Virus record (IMG/VR): IMGVR_UViG_3300031952_001743
Coordinates: 1 to 23,597 of that record
Source of the DNA: a virus
Strand: one strand, 5' to 3'
Length of the DNA stretch: 23,597 bases
Below the pieces are notes generated by a model that saw nothing but the letters and a program-made list of their open reading frames with translations, was not told the origin of the DNA and did not search any database. Shown here piece by piece: positions 1,556 through 22,895 of the stretch (position 1 is the stretch's first letter; the number at the start of each line of letters is the position of its first letter). The translations under genes were made by a program, and so were the position numbers.

Positions 1556-2069
1556 AAAACATAGAAAAAAGAGAATAGAACCGACCATAAAGTCAACGTT
1601 AAAATTAACTCCTTCTGCCCCAACACCTGAGAAAACACAGATGCATTATGATGAGATAGAATATATCCGGGCATTGTTGGCTACTATTCCTAATCTGTCA
1701 GAAGTATCGAGGATAACTGGTAGGAACAGGAATACAATATTAAGGATAAAAAGACTGAGTCAAGATGAGATTTCAGAATATAGAACGTTCAAAACAAAAG
1801 AGTTTGTGAAAAAAGCATGGGAAAAGATTGAATTGCTCATAAAAGCTATTAATGATGGGAAGTGTGCGTTTGCTTCTGTAAATCAACTTACTACTGCAAT
1901 TGGGACATTGTACGACAAGGCAGCCCTGGCAAGTGGGGACGTGACAAACCGCACCGAGCATAAAATCTCAGATATTGATTTATCGAAACTTAGTCTTGAA
2001 GAGAAGTTAAAACTCAGAGAATTTATGTTAAAAATAAATGGAAATGCAACTACAGACACAGACAATTGA
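1548..2069 (+). CDS. terS: Terminase small subunit candidate (HTH protein)
   Basis: This 173-residue protein lies immediately upstream of the large terminase, overlapping it by 32 bases, the usual place for the small subunit that recognises the packaging site and regulates the ATPase. The N-terminus is strongly basic (AKKHRKKR). Residues 37-70 read as a helix-turn-helix: a helix at HYDEIEYIRALLATIP, then NLSEVSRITGRNRNTILRIKRL, typical of phage homeodomain-like HTH. The middle, residues 80-130, is helical with KAWEKIELLIKAIND and a Gln/Thr/Leu helix suited to oligomerisation. The acidic, Ser/Leu-rich C-terminal segment (SDIDLSKLSLEEKLKLREF) would be the part that contacts TerL. Small terminase subunits are poorly conserved, so the call depends on position and the HTH rather than a sequence match. 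Confidence 0.65.
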   Translation: MAKKHRKKRIEPTIKSTLKLTPSAPTPEKTQMHYDEIEYIRALLATIPNLSEVSRITGRNRNTILRIKRLSQDEISEYRTFKTKEFVKKAWEKIELLIKAINDGKCAFASVNQLTTAIGTLYDKAALASGDVTNRTEHKISDIDLSKLSLEEKLKLREFMLKINGNATTDTDN

Positions 2070-4734
2070 TTTCACAAAGCTAAGACTCCCCACCATTGAG
2101 GAAATCGACAAATCAATAGCAGACGATTCTATATCGTTTAGCGATTGGTGTTCTAAAACTCCTGTAATCCTAGATGGCAATAATTTCTCATTTAAAAGGC
2201 ATGAGTATTTGGTAGAGCCATACCAGGACGTGCACAATTGCATTGTAGAGGAGAAAGCTGCACAGATGGGGCTAACCTCCAAGGCGATGCTTTCAGCCCT
2301 GTATGGGTCAAGGTACAGAGGATATAAGGGTATTCTATATTTATTCCCATCCAAGTCAGACGTTTTGGACTTCTCAAAAGGTAGGATTACTCCTCTAATT
2401 GATGATAACCCTGATACGATAGGATCGTGGCTGAGGGATACCGATGCCGCCGGTATTAAGGAGATATGGAACAGTTTTCTCTATCTCAGAGGGATGCAGA
2501 GTAAAATAGGATTAAAATGTCATGACGATCAAACCGAGGTACTTACCAAAGTTGGATGGAGGAAGTTTTCAGACATAAATATGCAAGATGAACTAGCCAC
2601 ACGATCTCCATCAGGTTGTTTTATGTGGCAGCAACCAATAGAGATACATAGTTATAAACATAATGGTAAAATGCTTAAATTTAAGGCTAATGGATTAGAT
2701 ATGTGTATAACCCCAAATCATCGTTTATTATTAACTAATCAGAGTAGAGAGGAGTGGTTTGAGACTGCAGAAAAAGCAAAAAAAGCAAACCATTTTATTG
2801 TAAGAACGTGTAAAAATTGGAAAGGAAAGTTCCCTAAATTTATTGTTAAAGACGGGAGAGACCAAGAAGGCACAAAGAAATTTATTATTATTAAAGGAAA
2901 TAAAAAAAATGGAGCATGGGAAAGTTTTGGTCGTCATCCAGAAAGAAAAATAAATCTAAAAATATTTATTGCTTTTCTAGGGTTATATATAGCAGAGGGT
3001 TGTTGCAGTGGAGTAAAAACAGGGATTAGGCAATTTGGGCGTATACATATTTCTCAAGAAAGAAAATCAAAGCATTTCAAAGAAATAAATGAACTTTTAA
3101 ATAAAATAGAGGTAAATGGACAGGGTATAAAAGGATGGAAATATAATGGTCATAGTTTTCGTGTTGGGGATATGGCGTTTGCAGACATTTTATTTCCTCT
3201 TGGAAATAAATATACAAAGTGTTTACCTGATTGGGTTCTCGATCTTCCTAAAAAATACCTTGAAATTCTATGGGAATGGTTACTAAAGGGTGATGGTCAC
3301 GTAAGTCCAAAAGGATATAGAATTTATGCAACAGTAAGTAAAAAATTAGCGGATCAACTTCAGGAAATACTTCAAAAATGTGGTAGGTCTGCATCCATTC
3401 TAATACAAAAAGGAAATACTGAAGGAAAATTAAAAGATGGAAGATTAGTAAAGTCAACTACTCCATGTTATTTAGTGTCTGAGAGAAAATCTCAATGTTC
3501 TAGGATTCCTATGTCGGAAGAAATGCAGTACAATGGTAAAGTATATTGTGCGTCTGTACCAAACGGTACTATTTATACAAGAAGAAATGGGTATGCTACG
3601 TGGAGTGGTAATTCGATCCCAGTTGACTATATAATTTTCGATGAGTTAGATGAGGCCCCTCAAAACTCTATTGATATGGCAATGGAACGTATGAGTCATA
3701 GTGAGTTTAAGAAGGTGTTAAAACTCTCTAATCCTACCCTACCTGATTACGGAATAGATCGAGCGTTTTTACAAACAGATCAAAGGTATTGGATGTTAAA
3801 GTGTAAGTCCTGCGGTGAATATACCTGCCTTGAGGATACATTCCCTGATTGTTTAATGGAAGTAGGGGATCGAGTTATTAGGGTATGTCAGAAGTGCCAA
3901 GGTGAACTCAACCCTGCTATTGGGGAGTGGGTAGCAAAGAAACTAGGTGTAACAGATAAGCGAGGTTATCATTATTCACAATTGTTTTCTCAGTTTGTTG
4001 ATCCTGCTGACATTCTTCATCAATTCAGAACGACCTCAAATCCTACTGATTTTTACAATCTAAAGATAGGGATTGCCTATGTAGAAGCCGAGAACAGACT
4101 CAGTGTGCAGGAAATACTATCACTGTGTTCTCCCGATGGTATCTCAAGTTCAGACCCAGGTTTATGTTTCATGGGAGTTGACCAAGGGAAGGACCTTCAT
4201 GTAGTCATAGGCAAACATATAGACAACGTTAGTAAAATCATACACATAGGTATTTACAAGGACTGGGAAGAACTTGATAGATTAATGACCATATTTAATG
4301 TGGCAAGATGTGTAGTTGATGCACTTCCAGAGACCCGAAACGCAAGGGCGTTTTCTGATAGGTTTAAAGGCAGAATATATCTCAATTATTACAATGATAG
4401 TCAACGTGGTAGATATTCGTGGAACGAAAAAGACATGATTGTAATGTGTAACAGAACGGAAAGTCTTGACGCTTCCCATAATGAGATAATGCACAAAAAC
4501 ATTATTTTACCAAAAGAGTGTGATATTGTTAATATATTTGCTAGACACTGTGCAAACATAGCCAAGAAGCTAGAAGAGGATGAGGAGACAGGGAATAAAC
4601 GATATGTGTATGTTAAGTTAGGAGATGATCATTTCAGACATGCGTACAATTATGAATGTATGGCGAGGACTGAGGGGGCTGGTCATTTCTGGTATGCAGA
4701 TGAGTTTAACTATAAAAGTGTGTTTAATGCGTAG
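2038..4734 (+). CDS. terL: Terminase large subunit (GpA-like) interrupted by an intein
   Basis: The 898-residue precursor has a terminase large subunit split by an intein at residues 161-525; the spliced product would be 533 residues. In the N-extein, KAAQMGLTS at residues 73-81 is a deviant Walker A like that of GpA-type terminases. The Walker B strand, VDYIIFDELDEAP, starts four residues after the intein, with Asp535 and Glu536 as the magnesium and catalytic residues. The C-extein then has two CxxC pairs (CKSCG and CQKCQG), a zinc-ribbon-like insertion, and an RNase H-like nuclease domain: GVDQGKD with Asp715, VVDALPETRNA with Asp761, and GDDHFRHAYNY near residue 864. The enzyme pumps phage DNA into the prohead through the portal and cuts it. 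The start overlaps the small-subunit gene and has no clear ribosome site, so translation is probably coupled. An alternative ATG lies two codons downstream. Confidence 0.92.
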   Translation: MEMQLQTQTIDFTKLRLPTIEEIDKSIADDSISFSDWCSKTPVILDGNNFSFKRHEYLVEPYQDVHNCIVEEKAAQMGLTSKAMLSALYGSRYRGYKGILYLFPSKSDVLDFSKGRITPLIDDNPDTIGSWLRDTDAAGIKEIWNSFLYLRGMQSKIGLKCHDDQTEVLTKVGWRKFSDINMQDELATRSPSGCFMWQQPIEIHSYKHNGKMLKFKANGLDMCITPNHRLLLTNQSREEWFETAEKAKKANHFIVRTCKNWKGKFPKFIVKDGRDQEGTKKFIIIKGNKKNGAWESFGRHPERKINLKIFIAFLGLYIAEGCCSGVKTGIRQFGRIHISQERKSKHFKEINELLNKIEVNGQGIKGWKYNGHSFRVGDMAFADILFPLGNKYTKCLPDWVLDLPKKYLEILWEWLLKGDGHVSPKGYRIYATVSKKLADQLQEILQKCGRSASILIQKGNTEGKLKDGRLVKSTTPCYLVSERKSQCSRIPMSEEMQYNGKVYCASVPNGTIYTRRNGYATWSGNSIPVDYIIFDELDEAPQNSIDMAMERMSHSEFKKVLKLSNPTLPDYGIDRAFLQTDQRYWMLKCKSCGEYTCLEDTFPDCLMEVGDRVIRVCQKCQGELNPAIGEWVAKKLGVTDKRGYHYSQLFSQFVDPADILHQFRTTSNPTDFYNLKIGIAYVEAENRLSVQEILSLCSPDGISSSDPGLCFMGVDQGKDLHVVIGKHIDNVSKIIHIGIYKDWEELDRLMTIFNVARCVVDALPETRNARAFSDRFKGRIYLNYYNDSQRGRYSWNEKDMIVMCNRTESLDASHNEIMHKNIILPKECDIVNIFARHCANIAKKLEEDEETGNKRYVYVKLGDDHFRHAYNYECMARTEGAGHFWYADEFNYKSVFNA
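2518..3612 (+). mobile_element. In-frame intein with LAGLIDADG homing endonuclease inside terL
   Basis: Residues 161-525 of the TerL precursor form a 365-residue intein. It begins at Cys161 (block A, CHDDQTEVLTKVGWRKF), has a block B with TPNHRLL (Thr225, His228), and ends with a block F/G of the form SVPNGTIYTRRNG then WSGN, with Asn525 as terminal residue and Ser526 as the +1 nucleophile. Between the splicing blocks lie two dodecapeptide motifs of a LAGLIDADG (DOD) endonuclease: FLGLYIAEG at residues 313-321 and WLLKGDGH at 414-421. The penultimate residue is Gly instead of the usual His. The insertion is immediately before the Walker B strand, a conserved active-site region favoured by inteins. 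The intein is fully in frame with no stops and appears more A-rich than the flanking terminase. Splicing competence is inferred from intact motifs. Confidence 0.93.
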
Positions 4735-18008: not shown

Positions 18009-21000
18009 ATGATGCCTCTGGCATTAGAAGAGCAATACCCAAAATATAAAGATAAGATAGTTACAGCAAGAAACTATGGATATGCTGATGATGATATCCT
18101 TGGTAAAATTAATGGGAAGGTAAATGAAGCTCGTGGTTACGGTTATACTGATGAAGAAATACTTGACCATTTAGGCTCACCTAAAACTCCCCCACCAGAA
18201 GAAATTCCTCAAGCACCATATTATGACATCAATACTGCTACTGGAAATGCAATGGTGTCACAAGATGGCAAGACGTTTGCTCAAGCACGTCCTGCCGCAC
18301 CTCCACCAGAAGAACAACCAACCCAAGAAGATGAGGGTATTTGGTGGCATGAACTTCCCTCAAAAGATAGAATTGAGGATATACAACAGACAATTAATAA
18401 TGGAGAACCAAGAAAATCCGACCCACTTCCTGCTGATTCTTTAATCAAAAGAATGTCTGGTGCTGGTTTCACCGCAGAACAAATAGACAAAGAATTAAAT
18501 CATTATTTTAATGTTACCAGTAAAACTAATTGGAGTTCAAGTACTTTACAACCTTGGAAAATGCGTCTTAGCAAAACACCCACACCCTCTATTGCTTCTC
18601 CTGACAGAATTCTACCAGAACAACCACAACTTCCCACCCCCATACCATCCTATGCTGAAATAGCAGGTGGTGTCACTCCCGAAGCAGTAGAACTCGCAAA
18701 AGGACAGGTAGAAGCGGGGATGTCTACCGCATCAGGACTATCTGCATTTTTACCACAACTAGGTGCTAGAATTTTAGGTGGATACACAAAGGGGCCAGAA
18801 TGGGCAGAGAAAACCTCGCAATTTCTTACCTACGAACCAAGAACAGAACAAGGGAAAACAATATCGGGAACACTTAATTACCCCTTTGCTTTGCTAGGTC
18901 AAGCAGAAGATAAATTAGTTGAGTTATCAAATAAAAATCCTGGTCTATATAGTATGGTACTAGGCAGTCCTGCCTTTGAGCGAATGACACCAGAGCAGAG
19001 AGAGCATGAGGTAAGGATTGCATTTCAAGGTGGATTATTAGCAACACCATTCATAAAGAATTTGTTTAAAAAGGCTAAAGTATCCATACCAGAGACAAGA
19101 CCCATAGAAGCACCAAAAGCCTTACCTGCTCCCGAAGAACAGATAGCTTTACCTGTTTCTCCAGAGTTAAAAGCACTTCCAGAAGCAGGGATAAACGGGA
19201 CGTCAGCCGAAGAAGTTAGAAAGATGGTGGAACGGCAGAGTGTTAAAGAAGTCAAGCCACCAGAAGGATTTAAAAAGGTTGACTTCGGTGTAAATACTGG
19301 GTTAGAAGGAGATAAACTAGAACGTGCATGGGATGACTTTCAAACTTCTTTTACTGGCGATATTCCACCCAGTGAACATTTCCAAAGTTGGATGAAAAAT
19401 AGATATAGTAAATTCAAAGAACCCCCACCCATTGAAGGGAAAGTTAAGCCACCTCACAAAATGACATTGGAGGAGTTCAAGAATTATGATTTTGAAACTC
19501 CTGTAGGTGGTGGGAGTGTAAAACCTTCAACCATATGGAAATGGAGAAAAGGCAAACCAGAAGAAGTAGGAGAAACACTTGCTGACTTAGCAACACATAC
19601 GGATGACTTTAGGTTTAAGGAAGTTCTTGGTAAAGGATGGGAACATGAATGGAAGAACAGTCTATCATTAGAAAATGATATTAAACAAGGGAAGGAAATT
19701 ACTATATGGAGGGCAAGACCAAAAGGAGAACCATCAGAAATAATGCCAGGTTCTTATGTTTCGGAGTCTAGAGAATATGCAACCAAACATGGTGAGAATA
19801 TTTTGGGTGGAGACTATACATTAGTTAGTGAGAAAGTGCACCCAGACGAGTTATTAATTTATGGCGACCCTCATGAGTTCATTTATTATCCAAGAAATGC
19901 AGAAATCGCTCACCAAAGAATTATAGAAAAAGCCCGTCCTGAAGGGAAAGTTAAACCACAAGAGGAAGTTGTTGCAGAGAAGTCAGCAGTTGAACCGTAC
20001 GAGAAGAAAGAACCATTAAAGATGTATCATCAGTCAGATACGGGTGAGTTGAAACTTGGAAAAGATATTTATGGCTTAGGAGAAGGTTATTTTGTATCAA
20101 GCAAAAAACTACCGAAAGGTTTCTACGGAAGCAAAGATGTAACAATATATCTTAAACCAGAAACAAAATTGTTTGACTTTCAACAGTGGGCAAAGGAAAG
20201 CAATAAAAAATTAAGAATACCGCCAGAAGATAGGGCAAAAATAATTGAGGAAGCATCAACTATAGCTAGGGAAGAAGGATATGATGGCATAGAGATAATG
20301 CCGGATGATATTTGGGTGTTTGACAAAAAGAGTATTATCCCGAAGGAGACTCCCAAGACCCTTACCAAACGTGAGGCATATTTAGAGAAAAGGAAAGGTA
20401 TTAAACCCATTGCCGAGATGCAGAAGGAGACAAAACCTCCACCATATTTATATCACGGGACAACACAAGGAGCACTTAGAAAAATAGTTTCTGATGGTTT
20501 AAAACCATCCACAATGAGGCAGATTTCTTTGTCTGATACAGAACAGTATGCCAAGACGTATGCTGACAGAAAAGGGGGGAGTAGAGGTATTATTCTTAGG
20601 ATAAAAAATAGTGAGAAGTATGTACCAGATACTAGGATACCAGAAGGAGGAGATTACTTATCAAAAGAAGCAGTTAAACCAGAAGATATTGAAGTCAAAA
20701 TGCCAAATGGCTCATGGGAGAAGTTGACTGATGTAGATGTATCAATGGGGAAGCCAGAGAAAAAAACTCTTAAGTCTATTTCCACCATGCAGAAGGAGAT
20801 AAAGGAAGGTGGGCAGGTTGAAAAGACAATAGAGAAGATGGTGGAGAAACCAGTTGAGGAAGTAAAGCCAGTTGAGAAGGAATACGGTATCAAAGACATC
20901 CTCAAGGATATAGATACTTCTTTGGGTGGAAAAGAACGTGGCTCATTCTCTGTAAAGGGGTTAACGAAGGAGCAATTAGAAGCACGACAGCGACTTGCAA

Positions 21001-22895
21001 AACGAGGGAAGGAATGGAAAGAGGAGTTTAAGAAGCAAGCAGCAGGCACTTTTAAGGATTTTAGGGACTTTCTTAGTTCCAAGGGATTAAGTGATGATAA
21101 GAAAACAAAACTGCTTTTATACATGAAACAGGAAGATAAAGTAAATAAGGAATTAGAAAACATAAAGGGAAAGGGAATATTTACCAAAGAGGAGTTAGAG
21201 ATAAAAGACGAGTTAACAAAAAAGGGGAAAGTAGCGAATGAACAAGCACAGAAAGTTCAGGAAGAACAAAAAACTGCTTTAGACAAAATGGTTGATGCAG
21301 TTAAAAAGGCTAAAGCACCAAGAAAGGAATTAGAAAAACTATATAGGGAGGAAAGAAGGAAACGAGCTGGGGCAATTGCTGGTATCATGGAAAAAGGTGA
21401 AGGAGAAAAGGGTTATTATCAATCTTTGTCTAAATTAAAAGGTGAGTTAGCACCAGAGAAACCAAGATATGAAGGAATAAAAAATAAATTAACTCAAGAT
21501 GATGTTGATTCACTTTTCTCTACAATTCAAAAGCATAAAGACTTAAACCCATTTGAGAAGATTACTGCGCAAACAGGGTTATACAATGTTTTTAATGGAA
21601 AGATACCACCCCATAGTCAACTGTCTTTATTAGAAGATGTTTTTGGTAAAGAATTAGTAGAAGCAGTAATAAGCAAAAGACCGTTTAGTAGAAAATTAAT
21701 GGACATGACGACCGAAGTTTTAAACATCCCTAAAACCCTTACCACATTTCTTGATATGTCCGCAGTATTAAGACAAGGGATATTTTTTGTTAGAAGGTTT
21801 CCTTCGGTTGGTAGGTCAATAAAGCAAATGTTTAGACAGGTATTTTCGCAAAAGAACTTTGATAATTGGTTAGATGATTTAAAGCACAGTAAAGATTATG
21901 AAGTAATGAAAGAATCAAAACTCTACATCGCTGACCCAAATAAAATTTCTGGTGGTCTTTCTGCAAAAGAAGAAAGATTTATGACCAACTTGGCTGAAAG
22001 AATACCCACTATAGGAAGAGGTGTCAAGGCTAGTGAAAGAGCATATGTTGGATACCTTAATGCACTAAGAGTTGACGTATTCAGGCAAATAGCAAAGAAA
22101 ATGCAAGAGAAAGGTTATGATCCAAAAGAGAACCCCAAAGTTTTTAAAAGTATTGCTGATTTGGTCAACAATGGAACAGGAAGGGGAGATATTGGAAGGT
22201 TACAACCAATAGCACAGGAATTAAACACTGCATTTTTTTCACCAAGACTTATTGCTGCCAGGTTTAATTTATTATTAAACCCAATGTTCTATGCGAAACT
22301 TGAGAAACCGGTAAGAATGGAAGCAGTTAAGGACTGGTTAGGATTTGTTGGTATTGGAATGACAGTACTGGCACTTGCAAAATTAAACGGTGCAGATGTT
22401 GAAGTCGATCTTAGAAGTAGTGATTTTGGTAAAATAAAAGTAGGAAACACAAGATGGGATATATGGGGTGGATTTCAACAATGGGTAAGACTTGCAGCAC
22501 AATTAGCGAGCAAACAAAGAAAGTCAACAAGCACTGGTAAGATTTATGAATTATCAGGGAAAAAGTTTCCCTTTGAAACCAGGTTAGATGTAGCAACTAG
22601 ATTTATTAAAGGGAAACTTGCACCAGTTCCATCTTTAGTAGTTGAATTATTGGAAGGACAAAAAATTTATGGTGGTGACATAACCCTTAAAGAAGAAGCT
22701 ATTGAAAGAATGATACCAATGTATATTCAAGATATTGATGACGCAATAAAACAGTTCGGGCCAGAGGCAATATTTACTACTGGTGTTCCTGCGTTCTTTG
22801 GTACTGGTGTTCAAACATACGAAGAAAAAAAGAAAACTTCCACAAGCGAAGGTAGAAGCAGAGGAAGCATGAGTCGAACCAGGACAGGTAGATAA
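18009..22895 (+). CDS. Giant multidomain virion protein with three ADP-ribosyltransferase-like modules
   Basis: 1628 residues, start ATG ATG preceded by AGAGGA. Residues 10-55 have a duplicated ARNYGYADDDIL / ARGYGYTDEEIL motif. Pro-rich linkers join three ART-like modules: about 560-640 (ITIWRARP, YVSESREYATKHG, EFIYYP), 668-780 (MYHQSDTG, GEGYFVSSKKL, REEGYDGIEIMP) and 812-900 (YLYHGTTQGAL, ISLSDTEQYAKTYADRKG, GIILRI). A lysine-rich coiled-coil stretch follows at about 1000-1160. The C-terminal 450 residues resemble domains of large phage polyvalent/internal proteins (LRQGIFFVRRFPS, FFSPRLIAARFNLLLNPMF, TRWDIWGGFQQWVRLAAQ) with a hydrophobic helix near 1443-1462 (WLGFVGIGMTVLALAK). Likely ejected with the DNA into the host. 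Catalytic activity is inferred; domain folds were assigned by motif reading only. Confidence 0.75.
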   Translation: MMPLALEEQYPKYKDKIVTARNYGYADDDILGKINGKVNEARGYGYTDEEILDHLGSPKTPPPEEIPQAPYYDINTATGNAMVSQDGKTFAQARPAAPPPEEQPTQEDEGIWWHELPSKDRIEDIQQTINNGEPRKSDPLPADSLIKRMSGAGFTAEQIDKELNHYFNVTSKTNWSSSTLQPWKMRLSKTPTPSIASPDRILPEQPQLPTPIPSYAEIAGGVTPEAVELAKGQVEAGMSTASGLSAFLPQLGARILGGYTKGPEWAEKTSQFLTYEPRTEQGKTISGTLNYPFALLGQAEDKLVELSNKNPGLYSMVLGSPAFERMTPEQREHEVRIAFQGGLLATPFIKNLFKKAKVSIPETRPIEAPKALPAPEEQIALPVSPELKALPEAGINGTSAEEVRKMVERQSVKEVKPPEGFKKVDFGVNTGLEGDKLERAWDDFQTSFTGDIPPSEHFQSWMKNRYSKFKEPPPIEGKVKPPHKMTLEEFKNYDFETPVGGGSVKPSTIWKWRKGKPEEVGETLADLATHTDDFRFKEVLGKGWEHEWKNSLSLENDIKQGKEITIWRARPKGEPSEIMPGSYVSESREYATKHGENILGGDYTLVSEKVHPDELLIYGDPHEFIYYPRNAEIAHQRIIEKARPEGKVKPQEEVVAEKSAVEPYEKKEPLKMYHQSDTGELKLGKDIYGLGEGYFVSSKKLPKGFYGSKDVTIYLKPETKLFDFQQWAKESNKKLRIPPEDRAKIIEEASTIAREEGYDGIEIMPDDIWVFDKKSIIPKETPKTLTKREAYLEKRKGIKPIAEMQKETKPPPYLYHGTTQGALRKIVSDGLKPSTMRQISLSDTEQYAKTYADRKGGSRGIILRIKNSEKYVPDTRIPEGGDYLSKEAVKPEDIEVKMPNGSWEKLTDVDVSMGKPEKKTLKSISTMQKEIKEGGQVEKTIEKMVEKPVEEVKPVEKEYGIKDILKDIDTSLGGKERGSFSVKGLTKEQLEARQRLAKRGKEWKEEFKKQAAGTFKDFRDFLSSKGLSDDKKTKLLLYMKQEDKVNKELENIKGKGIFTKEELEIKDELTKKGKVANEQAQKVQEEQKTALDKMVDAVKKAKAPRKELEKLYREERRKRAGAIAGIMEKGEGEKGYYQSLSKLKGELAPEKPRYEGIKNKLTQDDVDSLFSTIQKHKDLNPFEKITAQTGLYNVFNGKIPPHSQLSLLEDVFGKELVEAVISKRPFSRKLMDMTTEVLNIPKTLTTFLDMSAVLRQGIFFVRRFPSVGRSIKQMFRQVFSQKNFDNWLDDLKHSKDYEVMKESKLYIADPNKISGGLSAKEERFMTNLAERIPTIGRGVKASERAYVGYLNALRVDVFRQIAKKMQEKGYDPKENPKVFKSIADLVNNGTGRGDIGRLQPIAQELNTAFFSPRLIAARFNLLLNPMFYAKLEKPVRMEAVKDWLGFVGIGMTVLALAKLNGADVEVDLRSSDFGKIKVGNTRWDIWGGFQQWVRLAAQLASKQRKSTSTGKIYELSGKKFPFETRLDVATRFIKGKLAPVPSLVVELLEGQKIYGGDITLKEEAIERMIPMYIQDIDDAIKQFGPEAIFTTGVPAFFGTGVQTYEEKKKTSTSEGRSRGSMSRTRTGR

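What the first reader, a model, noticed from the sequence alone, without database searches (positions are those of the whole stretch)
19680..20720. Three dissimilar ADP-ribosyltransferase-like modules in one ejected-type protein
Residues 560-640, 668-780 and 812-900 each have an ART-like motif set with a different opening motif (WRA, MYHQS, YHGTT), joined by linkers sharing EGKVKP and MQKE. Phages are known to deliver single ART enzymes (for example T4 Alt), but three different modules in one large virion protein suggest a multi-target host-takeover or modification device.
Basis: partly seen in the sequence, partly recalled or inferred. Interest (0 to 1): 0.75.

Follow-up and report, generated by a model that had tools for sequence, protein, structure and literature searches.

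The report
Phage protein with three ADP-ribosyltransferase-like modules
A short-tailed-type phage encodes one very large protein, probably carried in the virion, that strings together three unlike modules resembling enzymes that attach ADP-ribose to cell molecules; this is a new variant of the known 'polyvalent' phage proteins, and one module belongs to a widespread phage domain family that has no entry in the protein family library Pfam.

Summary
The 1628-aa ORF (window 18009-22895) and its three modules are real. Module 3 (aa 797-905) is firmly an ART fold by homology: it matches the NAD lobe of KptA/Tpt1 (profile Prob 98%), but it lacks the RNA lobe and most of the Tpt1 catalytic tetrad, so it is not a 2'-phosphotransferase. 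Module 2 (aa 660-795) is an orphan by BLAST but matches ART-PolyVal (Prob 82-84%) collinearly, keeping the H-Y-D residues of that clade. Module 1 (aa 506-640) belongs to a widespread phage domain without a Pfam entry (85 of the fetched contigs), with E623 invariant and R568 and S/T585 nearly so. Its motifs look like an R-S-E ART, but profile tests are null and the fold match is weak. The shared linkers bracket modules 1 and 3 as in-frame direct repeats. The C-terminal ~475 aa define a framework family (58 contigs) whose N-terminal cargo is swapped (ART, zincin, phosphatase). Several ARTs in one protein is known for polyvalent proteins (Iyer 2017) and recurs in my contigs. The mixture of three ART types is a new variant of a known kind. 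Virion packaging, injection and activity are inferred.

The parts
18009..22895 (+). 1628-aa polyvalent-type protein carrying all three modules
   Evidence: Single ORF; late cluster with terminase, portal and capsid genes; C-terminal framework shared with 58 IMG/VR contigs
19524..19928 (+). Module 1 (aa 506-640): phage domain without a Pfam entry, candidate R-S/T-E ART; R568 (codon 19710), S585 (19761), E623 (19875)
   Evidence: 80 loci; 66 distinct rows: E623 100%, Y590 100%, H594 98%, S/T585 94%, R568 83%; AF2 pLDDT 90-97 over the core; best PDB probabilities are two ART-fold proteins, not significant
19986..20393 (+). Module 2 (aa 660-795): HYD2/ART-PolyVal-like ART; H674, Y694, GYDG 757-760, D766/D767
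   Evidence: hhalign to 73-row ART-PolyVal profile Prob 82%, score 33.9, controls at most 19.6; collinear over 117 columns; no BLAST or Pfam hit; AF2 model poor
20397..20723 (+). Module 3 (aa 797-905): KptA/Tpt1 NAD lobe without RNA lobe; H816, T818, R854 kept; position of Tpt1 Arg121 is M836
   Evidence: Pfam PF01885 27.0 bits over the 26-bit cut-off when cut out; hhalign to KptA NAD lobe Prob 98%, E 2e-13; residue mapping after PMC6333775
19433..19452 (+). Direct repeat encoding EGKVKP, left of module 1
   Evidence: 95% identical to 19940-19959, spacing 507 = 3x169
19940..19959 (+). Direct repeat encoding EGKVKP, right of module 1
20394..20434 (+). Direct repeat with MQKE, left of module 3
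   Evidence: 73% identical to 20763-20803, spacing 369 = 3x123
20763..20803 (+). Direct repeat with MQKE, right of module 3
21396..22820 (+). C-terminal framework domain (aa 1130-1604), conserved across phages while the N-terminal cargo differs; conserved hydrophobic segment at aa 1444-1462
   Evidence: 58 loci, up to 54% identity; cargo in relatives: ART-PolyVal, His_Phos_1, LPD22; hydrophobic segment

Best explanation
It is a phage polyvalent effector: a large protein, probably packaged in the virion and passed into the cell with the DNA, whose C-terminal framework is shared among many phages while the middle carries swappable effector modules. Here the cargo is three ART-superfamily domains of different lineages: a candidate minimal R-S/T-E ART (module 1), an H-Y-D ART of the ART-PolyVal/HYD2 kind (module 2) and a stand-alone KptA-type NAD lobe (module 3). 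Most likely each binds NAD+ and transfers ADP-ribose to a different host macromolecule early in infection, so the array widens the target range of one delivered chain. Shown: domain architecture, homology of modules 2 and 3 to ARTs, retained signature residues, framework conservation and cargo swapping. Inferred: packaging, injection, catalysis, targets.
For: Modules 2 and 3 match ART profiles far above controls. Module 1 family has an invariant E and near-invariant R and S/T and lies in the same ORF as ART-PolyVal domains in about 17 distinct contigs. The framework family carries ART-PolyVal in L109, where a zincin-like HEIQH stretch is also visible, histidine phosphatase in L088/L090 and LPD22 in L134, and module 1 again in L125 and L131. 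The closest module-1 relative L075 carries ddrB-ParB. Gene position among late structural genes. Literature: polyvalent proteins and multi-copy ARTs (PMC5512222); phage ARTs often in head-packaging contexts (PMC9503650).
Against: Module 1 shows no profile similarity to ART-PolyVal, KptA, T4 Alt or a phage PF03496 ART, and its Foldseek matches are not significant. Module 2 gave only a poor model. Whole-protein Pfam gives only a sub-threshold KptA hit. No PF18760 hit in the window. No virion data; the C-terminal family has no PHROG relative. Module 3 lacks three or four of the four Tpt1 catalytic residues.
Confidence: 0.62

Rival explanations
1. Only modules 2 and 3 are ARTs. Module 1 is an unrelated, unnamed phage domain (substrate-binding or structural) that is often coupled to ARTs.
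For: No profile link of module 1 to any ART tested; none of 39 members hits an ART family in Pfam, and PHROGs files it as 'ParB C-terminal domain'; it can be short and stand alone next to terminase.
Against: Invariant E, near-invariant R and S/T in ART-like order; the highest Foldseek probabilities in PDB are two ART-fold proteins (0.23 cholera toxin A1 subunit, 0.18 IcmQ).
Confidence: 0.3
2. The modules are NAD+-binding or NAD-degrading domains, or decayed ARTs, that work as NADases or as decoys for host NAD-based defence rather than modifying macromolecules.
For: Module 3 keeps the NAD lobe (H816, T818, R854) but lacks the RNA lobe and has Met at the Arg121 position; module 2 has YHQS in place of the usual YHGT.
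Against: The third catalytic-type acidic residue is kept in modules 1 and 2 (E623, D766/D767); polyvalent ARTs are predicted to modify proteins (PMC5512222).
Confidence: 0.2
3. Module 3 is a working RNA 2'-phosphotransferase used for RNA repair.
For: Best homology is to KptA.
Against: About 20 aa of linker precede it instead of the ~85-aa RNA lobe; Tpt1 Arg18, His19 and Arg68 lie in that lobe (PMC6333775); Arg121 position is M836.
Confidence: 0.04
4. The similarities are chance motif matches in linker-rich sequence.
For: Module 2 has no BLAST or Pfam hit; the ORF has K/E/P-rich stretches.
Against: Control and shuffle distributions are well separated; module 1 is conserved across at least 85 contigs.
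Confidence: 0.03

Closest known systems
Polyvalent proteins of phages and conjugative elements (Iyer et al. 2017, PMC5512222)
   Same: Large multidomain protein in a late/virion gene context, swappable enzymatic cargo, ARTs as common cargo, several ARTs per chain known (up to 12 copies)
   Different: The described polyvalent ARTs are of one clade (HYD2); here three unlike types share one chain, one of them a KptA NAD lobe (KptA is not mentioned in that paper). No HExxH metallopeptidase motif in this protein.
ART-PolyVal, PF18760 (Tox-ART-HYD2 clade)
   Same: Module 2 aligns collinearly, with H, Y, GYDG and D
   Different: YHQS for YHGT; no Pfam hit at E 10; no close relative found anywhere
KptA/Tpt1 RNA 2'-phosphotransferase, PF01885
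   Same: Module 3 matches the NAD lobe, HGT motif and Arg139-type arginine
   Different: RNA lobe absent, Arg121 position is Met, embedded in a polyvalent protein
T4 Alt (R-S-E ART injected with DNA)
   Same: Module 1 shows the same order of motifs: YR, then V-[ST], then E...P
   Different: Much shorter between motifs; hhalign not significant
C-terminal framework protein of MW202497 (UOF78006.1)
   Same: Same C-terminal domain, 28.5% identity over 475 aa, same late position
   Different: No ART modules recognised in it by Pfam

Membership tests
Polyvalent protein (Iyer 2017) | Several enzymatic or effector domains of different kinds in one phage polypeptide | tested here: met
   At least two ART types plus module 1 and a framework domain
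Polyvalent protein (Iyer 2017) | Gene in a late/virion neighbourhood | tested here: met
   Terminase, portal and capsid genes upstream
Polyvalent protein (Iyer 2017) | Linkage by homology to known polyvalent domains | tested here: met
   Relatives of framework or module 1 carry ART-PolyVal, LPD22 or ddrB-ParB
Polyvalent protein (Iyer 2017) | Delivered into the host with DNA | not testable with these tools
   Needs virion proteomics and infection assays
ART-PolyVal / Tox-ART-HYD2 (module 2) | Pfam PF18760 above its cut-off | tested here: not met
   No hit at E 10
ART-PolyVal / Tox-ART-HYD2 (module 2) | H (strand 1), Y (strand 2), D (strand 5) | tested here: met
   H674, Y694, D766/D767 by profile alignment
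ART-PolyVal / Tox-ART-HYD2 (module 2) | ART fold | tested here: inconclusive
   AF2 pLDDT 52, Foldseek uninformative; profile match Prob 82-84%
KptA/Tpt1 (module 3) | NAD lobe homology | tested here: met
   Prob 98%, E 2e-13; PF01885 27.0 bits against 26
KptA/Tpt1 (module 3) | N-terminal RNA lobe | tested here: not met
   Module 2 and a short linker occupy that position
KptA/Tpt1 (module 3) | Arg-His-Arg-Arg tetrad | tested here: not met
   First three residues lie in the missing lobe; Arg121 position is M836, with R837 next to it
R-S-E ART, Alt-like (module 1) | R, S/T and E in order, conserved | tested here: met
   R568 83% (most other rows carry an insertion at that place), S/T585 94%, E623 100% of 66 rows
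R-S-E ART, Alt-like (module 1) | Profile similarity to a known R-S-E ART | tested here: not met
   T4 Alt and a phage PF03496 ART: Prob below 1%
R-S-E ART, Alt-like (module 1) | ART fold | tested here: inconclusive
   AF2 core pLDDT 90-97; best PDB probabilities are ART-fold proteins, E 1.6-3.1
T7-type ejection protein | Sequence relation to known internal virion proteins | tested here: not met
   No PHROG or PDB relative of the C-terminal family

The most novel reading that the evidence does not exclude
Module 1 defines an unrecognised, widespread family of minimal R-S/T-E ADP-ribosyltransferases in phage virion-type proteins, and this protein is a combined three-chemistry ART array (R-S-E, H-Y-D and KptA-lobe) assembled by linker-repeat recombination to hit several classes of host target from one injected chain.
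Probability: 0.35. Interest if true: 0.68.

Novelty: new variant of a known kind. Interest (0 to 1): 0.42.

Why it matters
It adds two pieces to the polyvalent-protein picture. One is a KptA-type NAD lobe used as cargo without its RNA lobe. The other is a common phage domain (module 1), absent from Pfam, with a clear catalytic-looking signature, repeatedly found in the same ORF as ARTs. If module 1 is an ART, a large set of environmental phages carries an enzyme class that current family libraries miss, and its target can be sought directly with isolated domains.

Tried and rejected
Whole-protein and 347-aa searches of IMG/VR with single sequences found nothing. Module 2 had no match in phages, only chance TetR matches in plasmids, and none among genome contigs. 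The pattern EGYDGIEI retrieved no relative. No defence-family (PADLOC) match. A mixed alignment put ART-PolyVal rows on module 3, so module 2 was folded alone, with a poor result. A first hhalign run of module 1 against a PF03496 ART read a stale file and was repeated. The idea that the N-terminal GYxDxEI repeat is shared by the framework family failed. Neighbouring window genes are not conserved with framework relatives, apart from one terminase match. KptA function for module 3 rejected on missing residues.

Full report
What was checked. The window is a 23,597-base IMG/VR virus record. It holds a late cluster: terminase large subunit interrupted by an intein, a head-tail adaptor/portal-type protein, a major head protein, then a 383-aa ORF and a 1628-aa ORF at 18009-22895.

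Module 3 (aa 797-905). Pfam PF01885 reaches 27.0 bits, over its 26-bit cut-off, when the module is cut out. A profile of the NAD lobe of viral KptA proteins matches it with Prob 98%, E 2e-13, score 73, while 150 control segments reach at most 16.9. It also matches an ART-PolyVal profile (Prob 86.5%). The structure paper of Tpt1 places Arg18, His19 and Arg68 of the essential tetrad in the RNA lobe (aa 1-85) and Arg121 in the NAD lobe (PMC6333775). Here only about 20 linker residues precede the lobe, and counting from the HGT motif puts Met836 at the Arg121 position. His816, Thr818 and Arg854 are kept. It is therefore a stand-alone NAD lobe and most likely not a 2'-phosphotransferase.

Module 2 (aa 660-795). 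There is no BLAST relative in phages, only chance TetR matches in plasmids, and no relative among genome contigs. Pfam gives nothing. A 73-row ART-PolyVal profile matches it with Prob 82%, score 33.9, against at most 19.6 in 150 controls. With low alignment stringency the match is collinear over 117 columns: PLKMYHQS to P-LYHGT, GEGYFVSS to GxGxxFT, GYDGI to GYDG and DDIWVFDKKSI to the final strand. The N-terminal half alone is only slightly above the best of 100 shuffles (score 20.4 against 19.3); the C-terminal half carries most of the signal. H674, Y694 and D766/D767 fit the H-Y-D set described for polyvalent ARTs (PMC5512222). AlphaFold gave a poor model (pLDDT 52), so the fold itself is not shown.

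Module 1 (aa 506-640). It has close relatives in 80 IMG/VR loci from one scan, best L075. It has no Pfam family; PHROGs files all members as 'ParB C-terminal domain'. Across 66 distinct rows E623 and Y590 are invariant, H594 98%, S/T585 94%, R568 83%; most other rows carry an insertion just after IYRA. The order YR, V-S/T, E...P resembles R-S-E ARTs such as T4 Alt, but hhalign to Alt, to a phage PF03496 ART, to ART-PolyVal and to KptA is null. The AlphaFold core is confident (pLDDT 90-97). In PDB no match is significant, yet the two highest probabilities belong to the cholera toxin A1 subunit (0.23), an ART, and IcmQ (0.18), whose NAD-binding ART-like domain I know from the literature but did not test here. 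Confident matches in the viral fold library are all unnamed or polyvalent phage proteins. I put the chance that module 1 is an ART at about two in three.

Linkers. EGKVKP (aa 476 and 645) brackets module 1 and MQKE (aa 804 and 927) brackets module 3. In DNA these are in-frame direct repeats: 20 nt at 95%, spacing 507, and 41 nt at 73%, spacing 369. Each is the best pair of the ORF under one of two scorings; the first exceeds, and the second equals, the best of 40 codon shuffles. This suggests cassette-like gain or duplication of modules 1 and 3, with moderate support.

Framework. The C-terminal 475 aa recur in 58 IMG/VR contigs, starting anywhere from residue 67 to 3334 of the host protein, so the part before it varies greatly in size. 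Cargo seen in relatives: ART-PolyVal in L109, with a zincin-like HEIQH stretch visible in its sequence, histidine phosphatase in L088 and L090, LPD22 in L134, and module 1 again in L125 and L131. The family has no PHROG or PDB match. It keeps a moderately hydrophobic segment (aa 1444-1462). In the annotated relative MW202497 it lies just after tail/stabilisation genes. Packaging and injection are therefore inferred, not shown.

How unusual are several ARTs? Iyer et al. [quoted passage not shown] In my contigs, about 17 distinct ORFs carry module 1 together with ART-PolyVal, three of them with two or more ARTs (L034: two plus module 1; L022: two plus module 1; L076: three plus module 1). Many others carry two ART-PolyVal domains. 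What I did not find elsewhere is a KptA-type lobe inside such a protein.

Mechanism. The best reading is a polyvalent effector whose three ART-superfamily modules act on different host molecules after delivery. The order of evidence is: architecture and homology shown; residues retained shown; activity, targets and delivery inferred. Verdict: new variant of a known kind, interest 0.42.

Noticed in passing
window 2038-4734: Terminase large subunit (898 aa) is interrupted by an intein with LAGLIDADG homing endonuclease and intein splicing matches.
   Followed up: partly
window 18042-18165: N-terminal 63-bp-spaced repeat encoding two copies of a YGYxDDxIL/YGYTDEEIL helix motif; weak HAAS match. 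Not found in the framework relatives with the pattern used.
   Followed up: partly
L076, L034, L022: Phage proteins with module 1 plus two or three ART-PolyVal domains in one ORF.
   Followed up: partly
L088:5603-11239, L090:5822-11263: Histidine phosphatase domain (PF00300) as cargo in front of the same C-terminal framework.
   Followed up: no
L143:1444-1899: Stand-alone 151-aa phage protein that looks like a KptA-type NAD lobe without RNA lobe, in a 484-kb phage.
   Followed up: no
L067 record (L237): The same phage contig holds a module-1 protein and a separate PF03496 ADP-ribosyltransferase.
   Followed up: no
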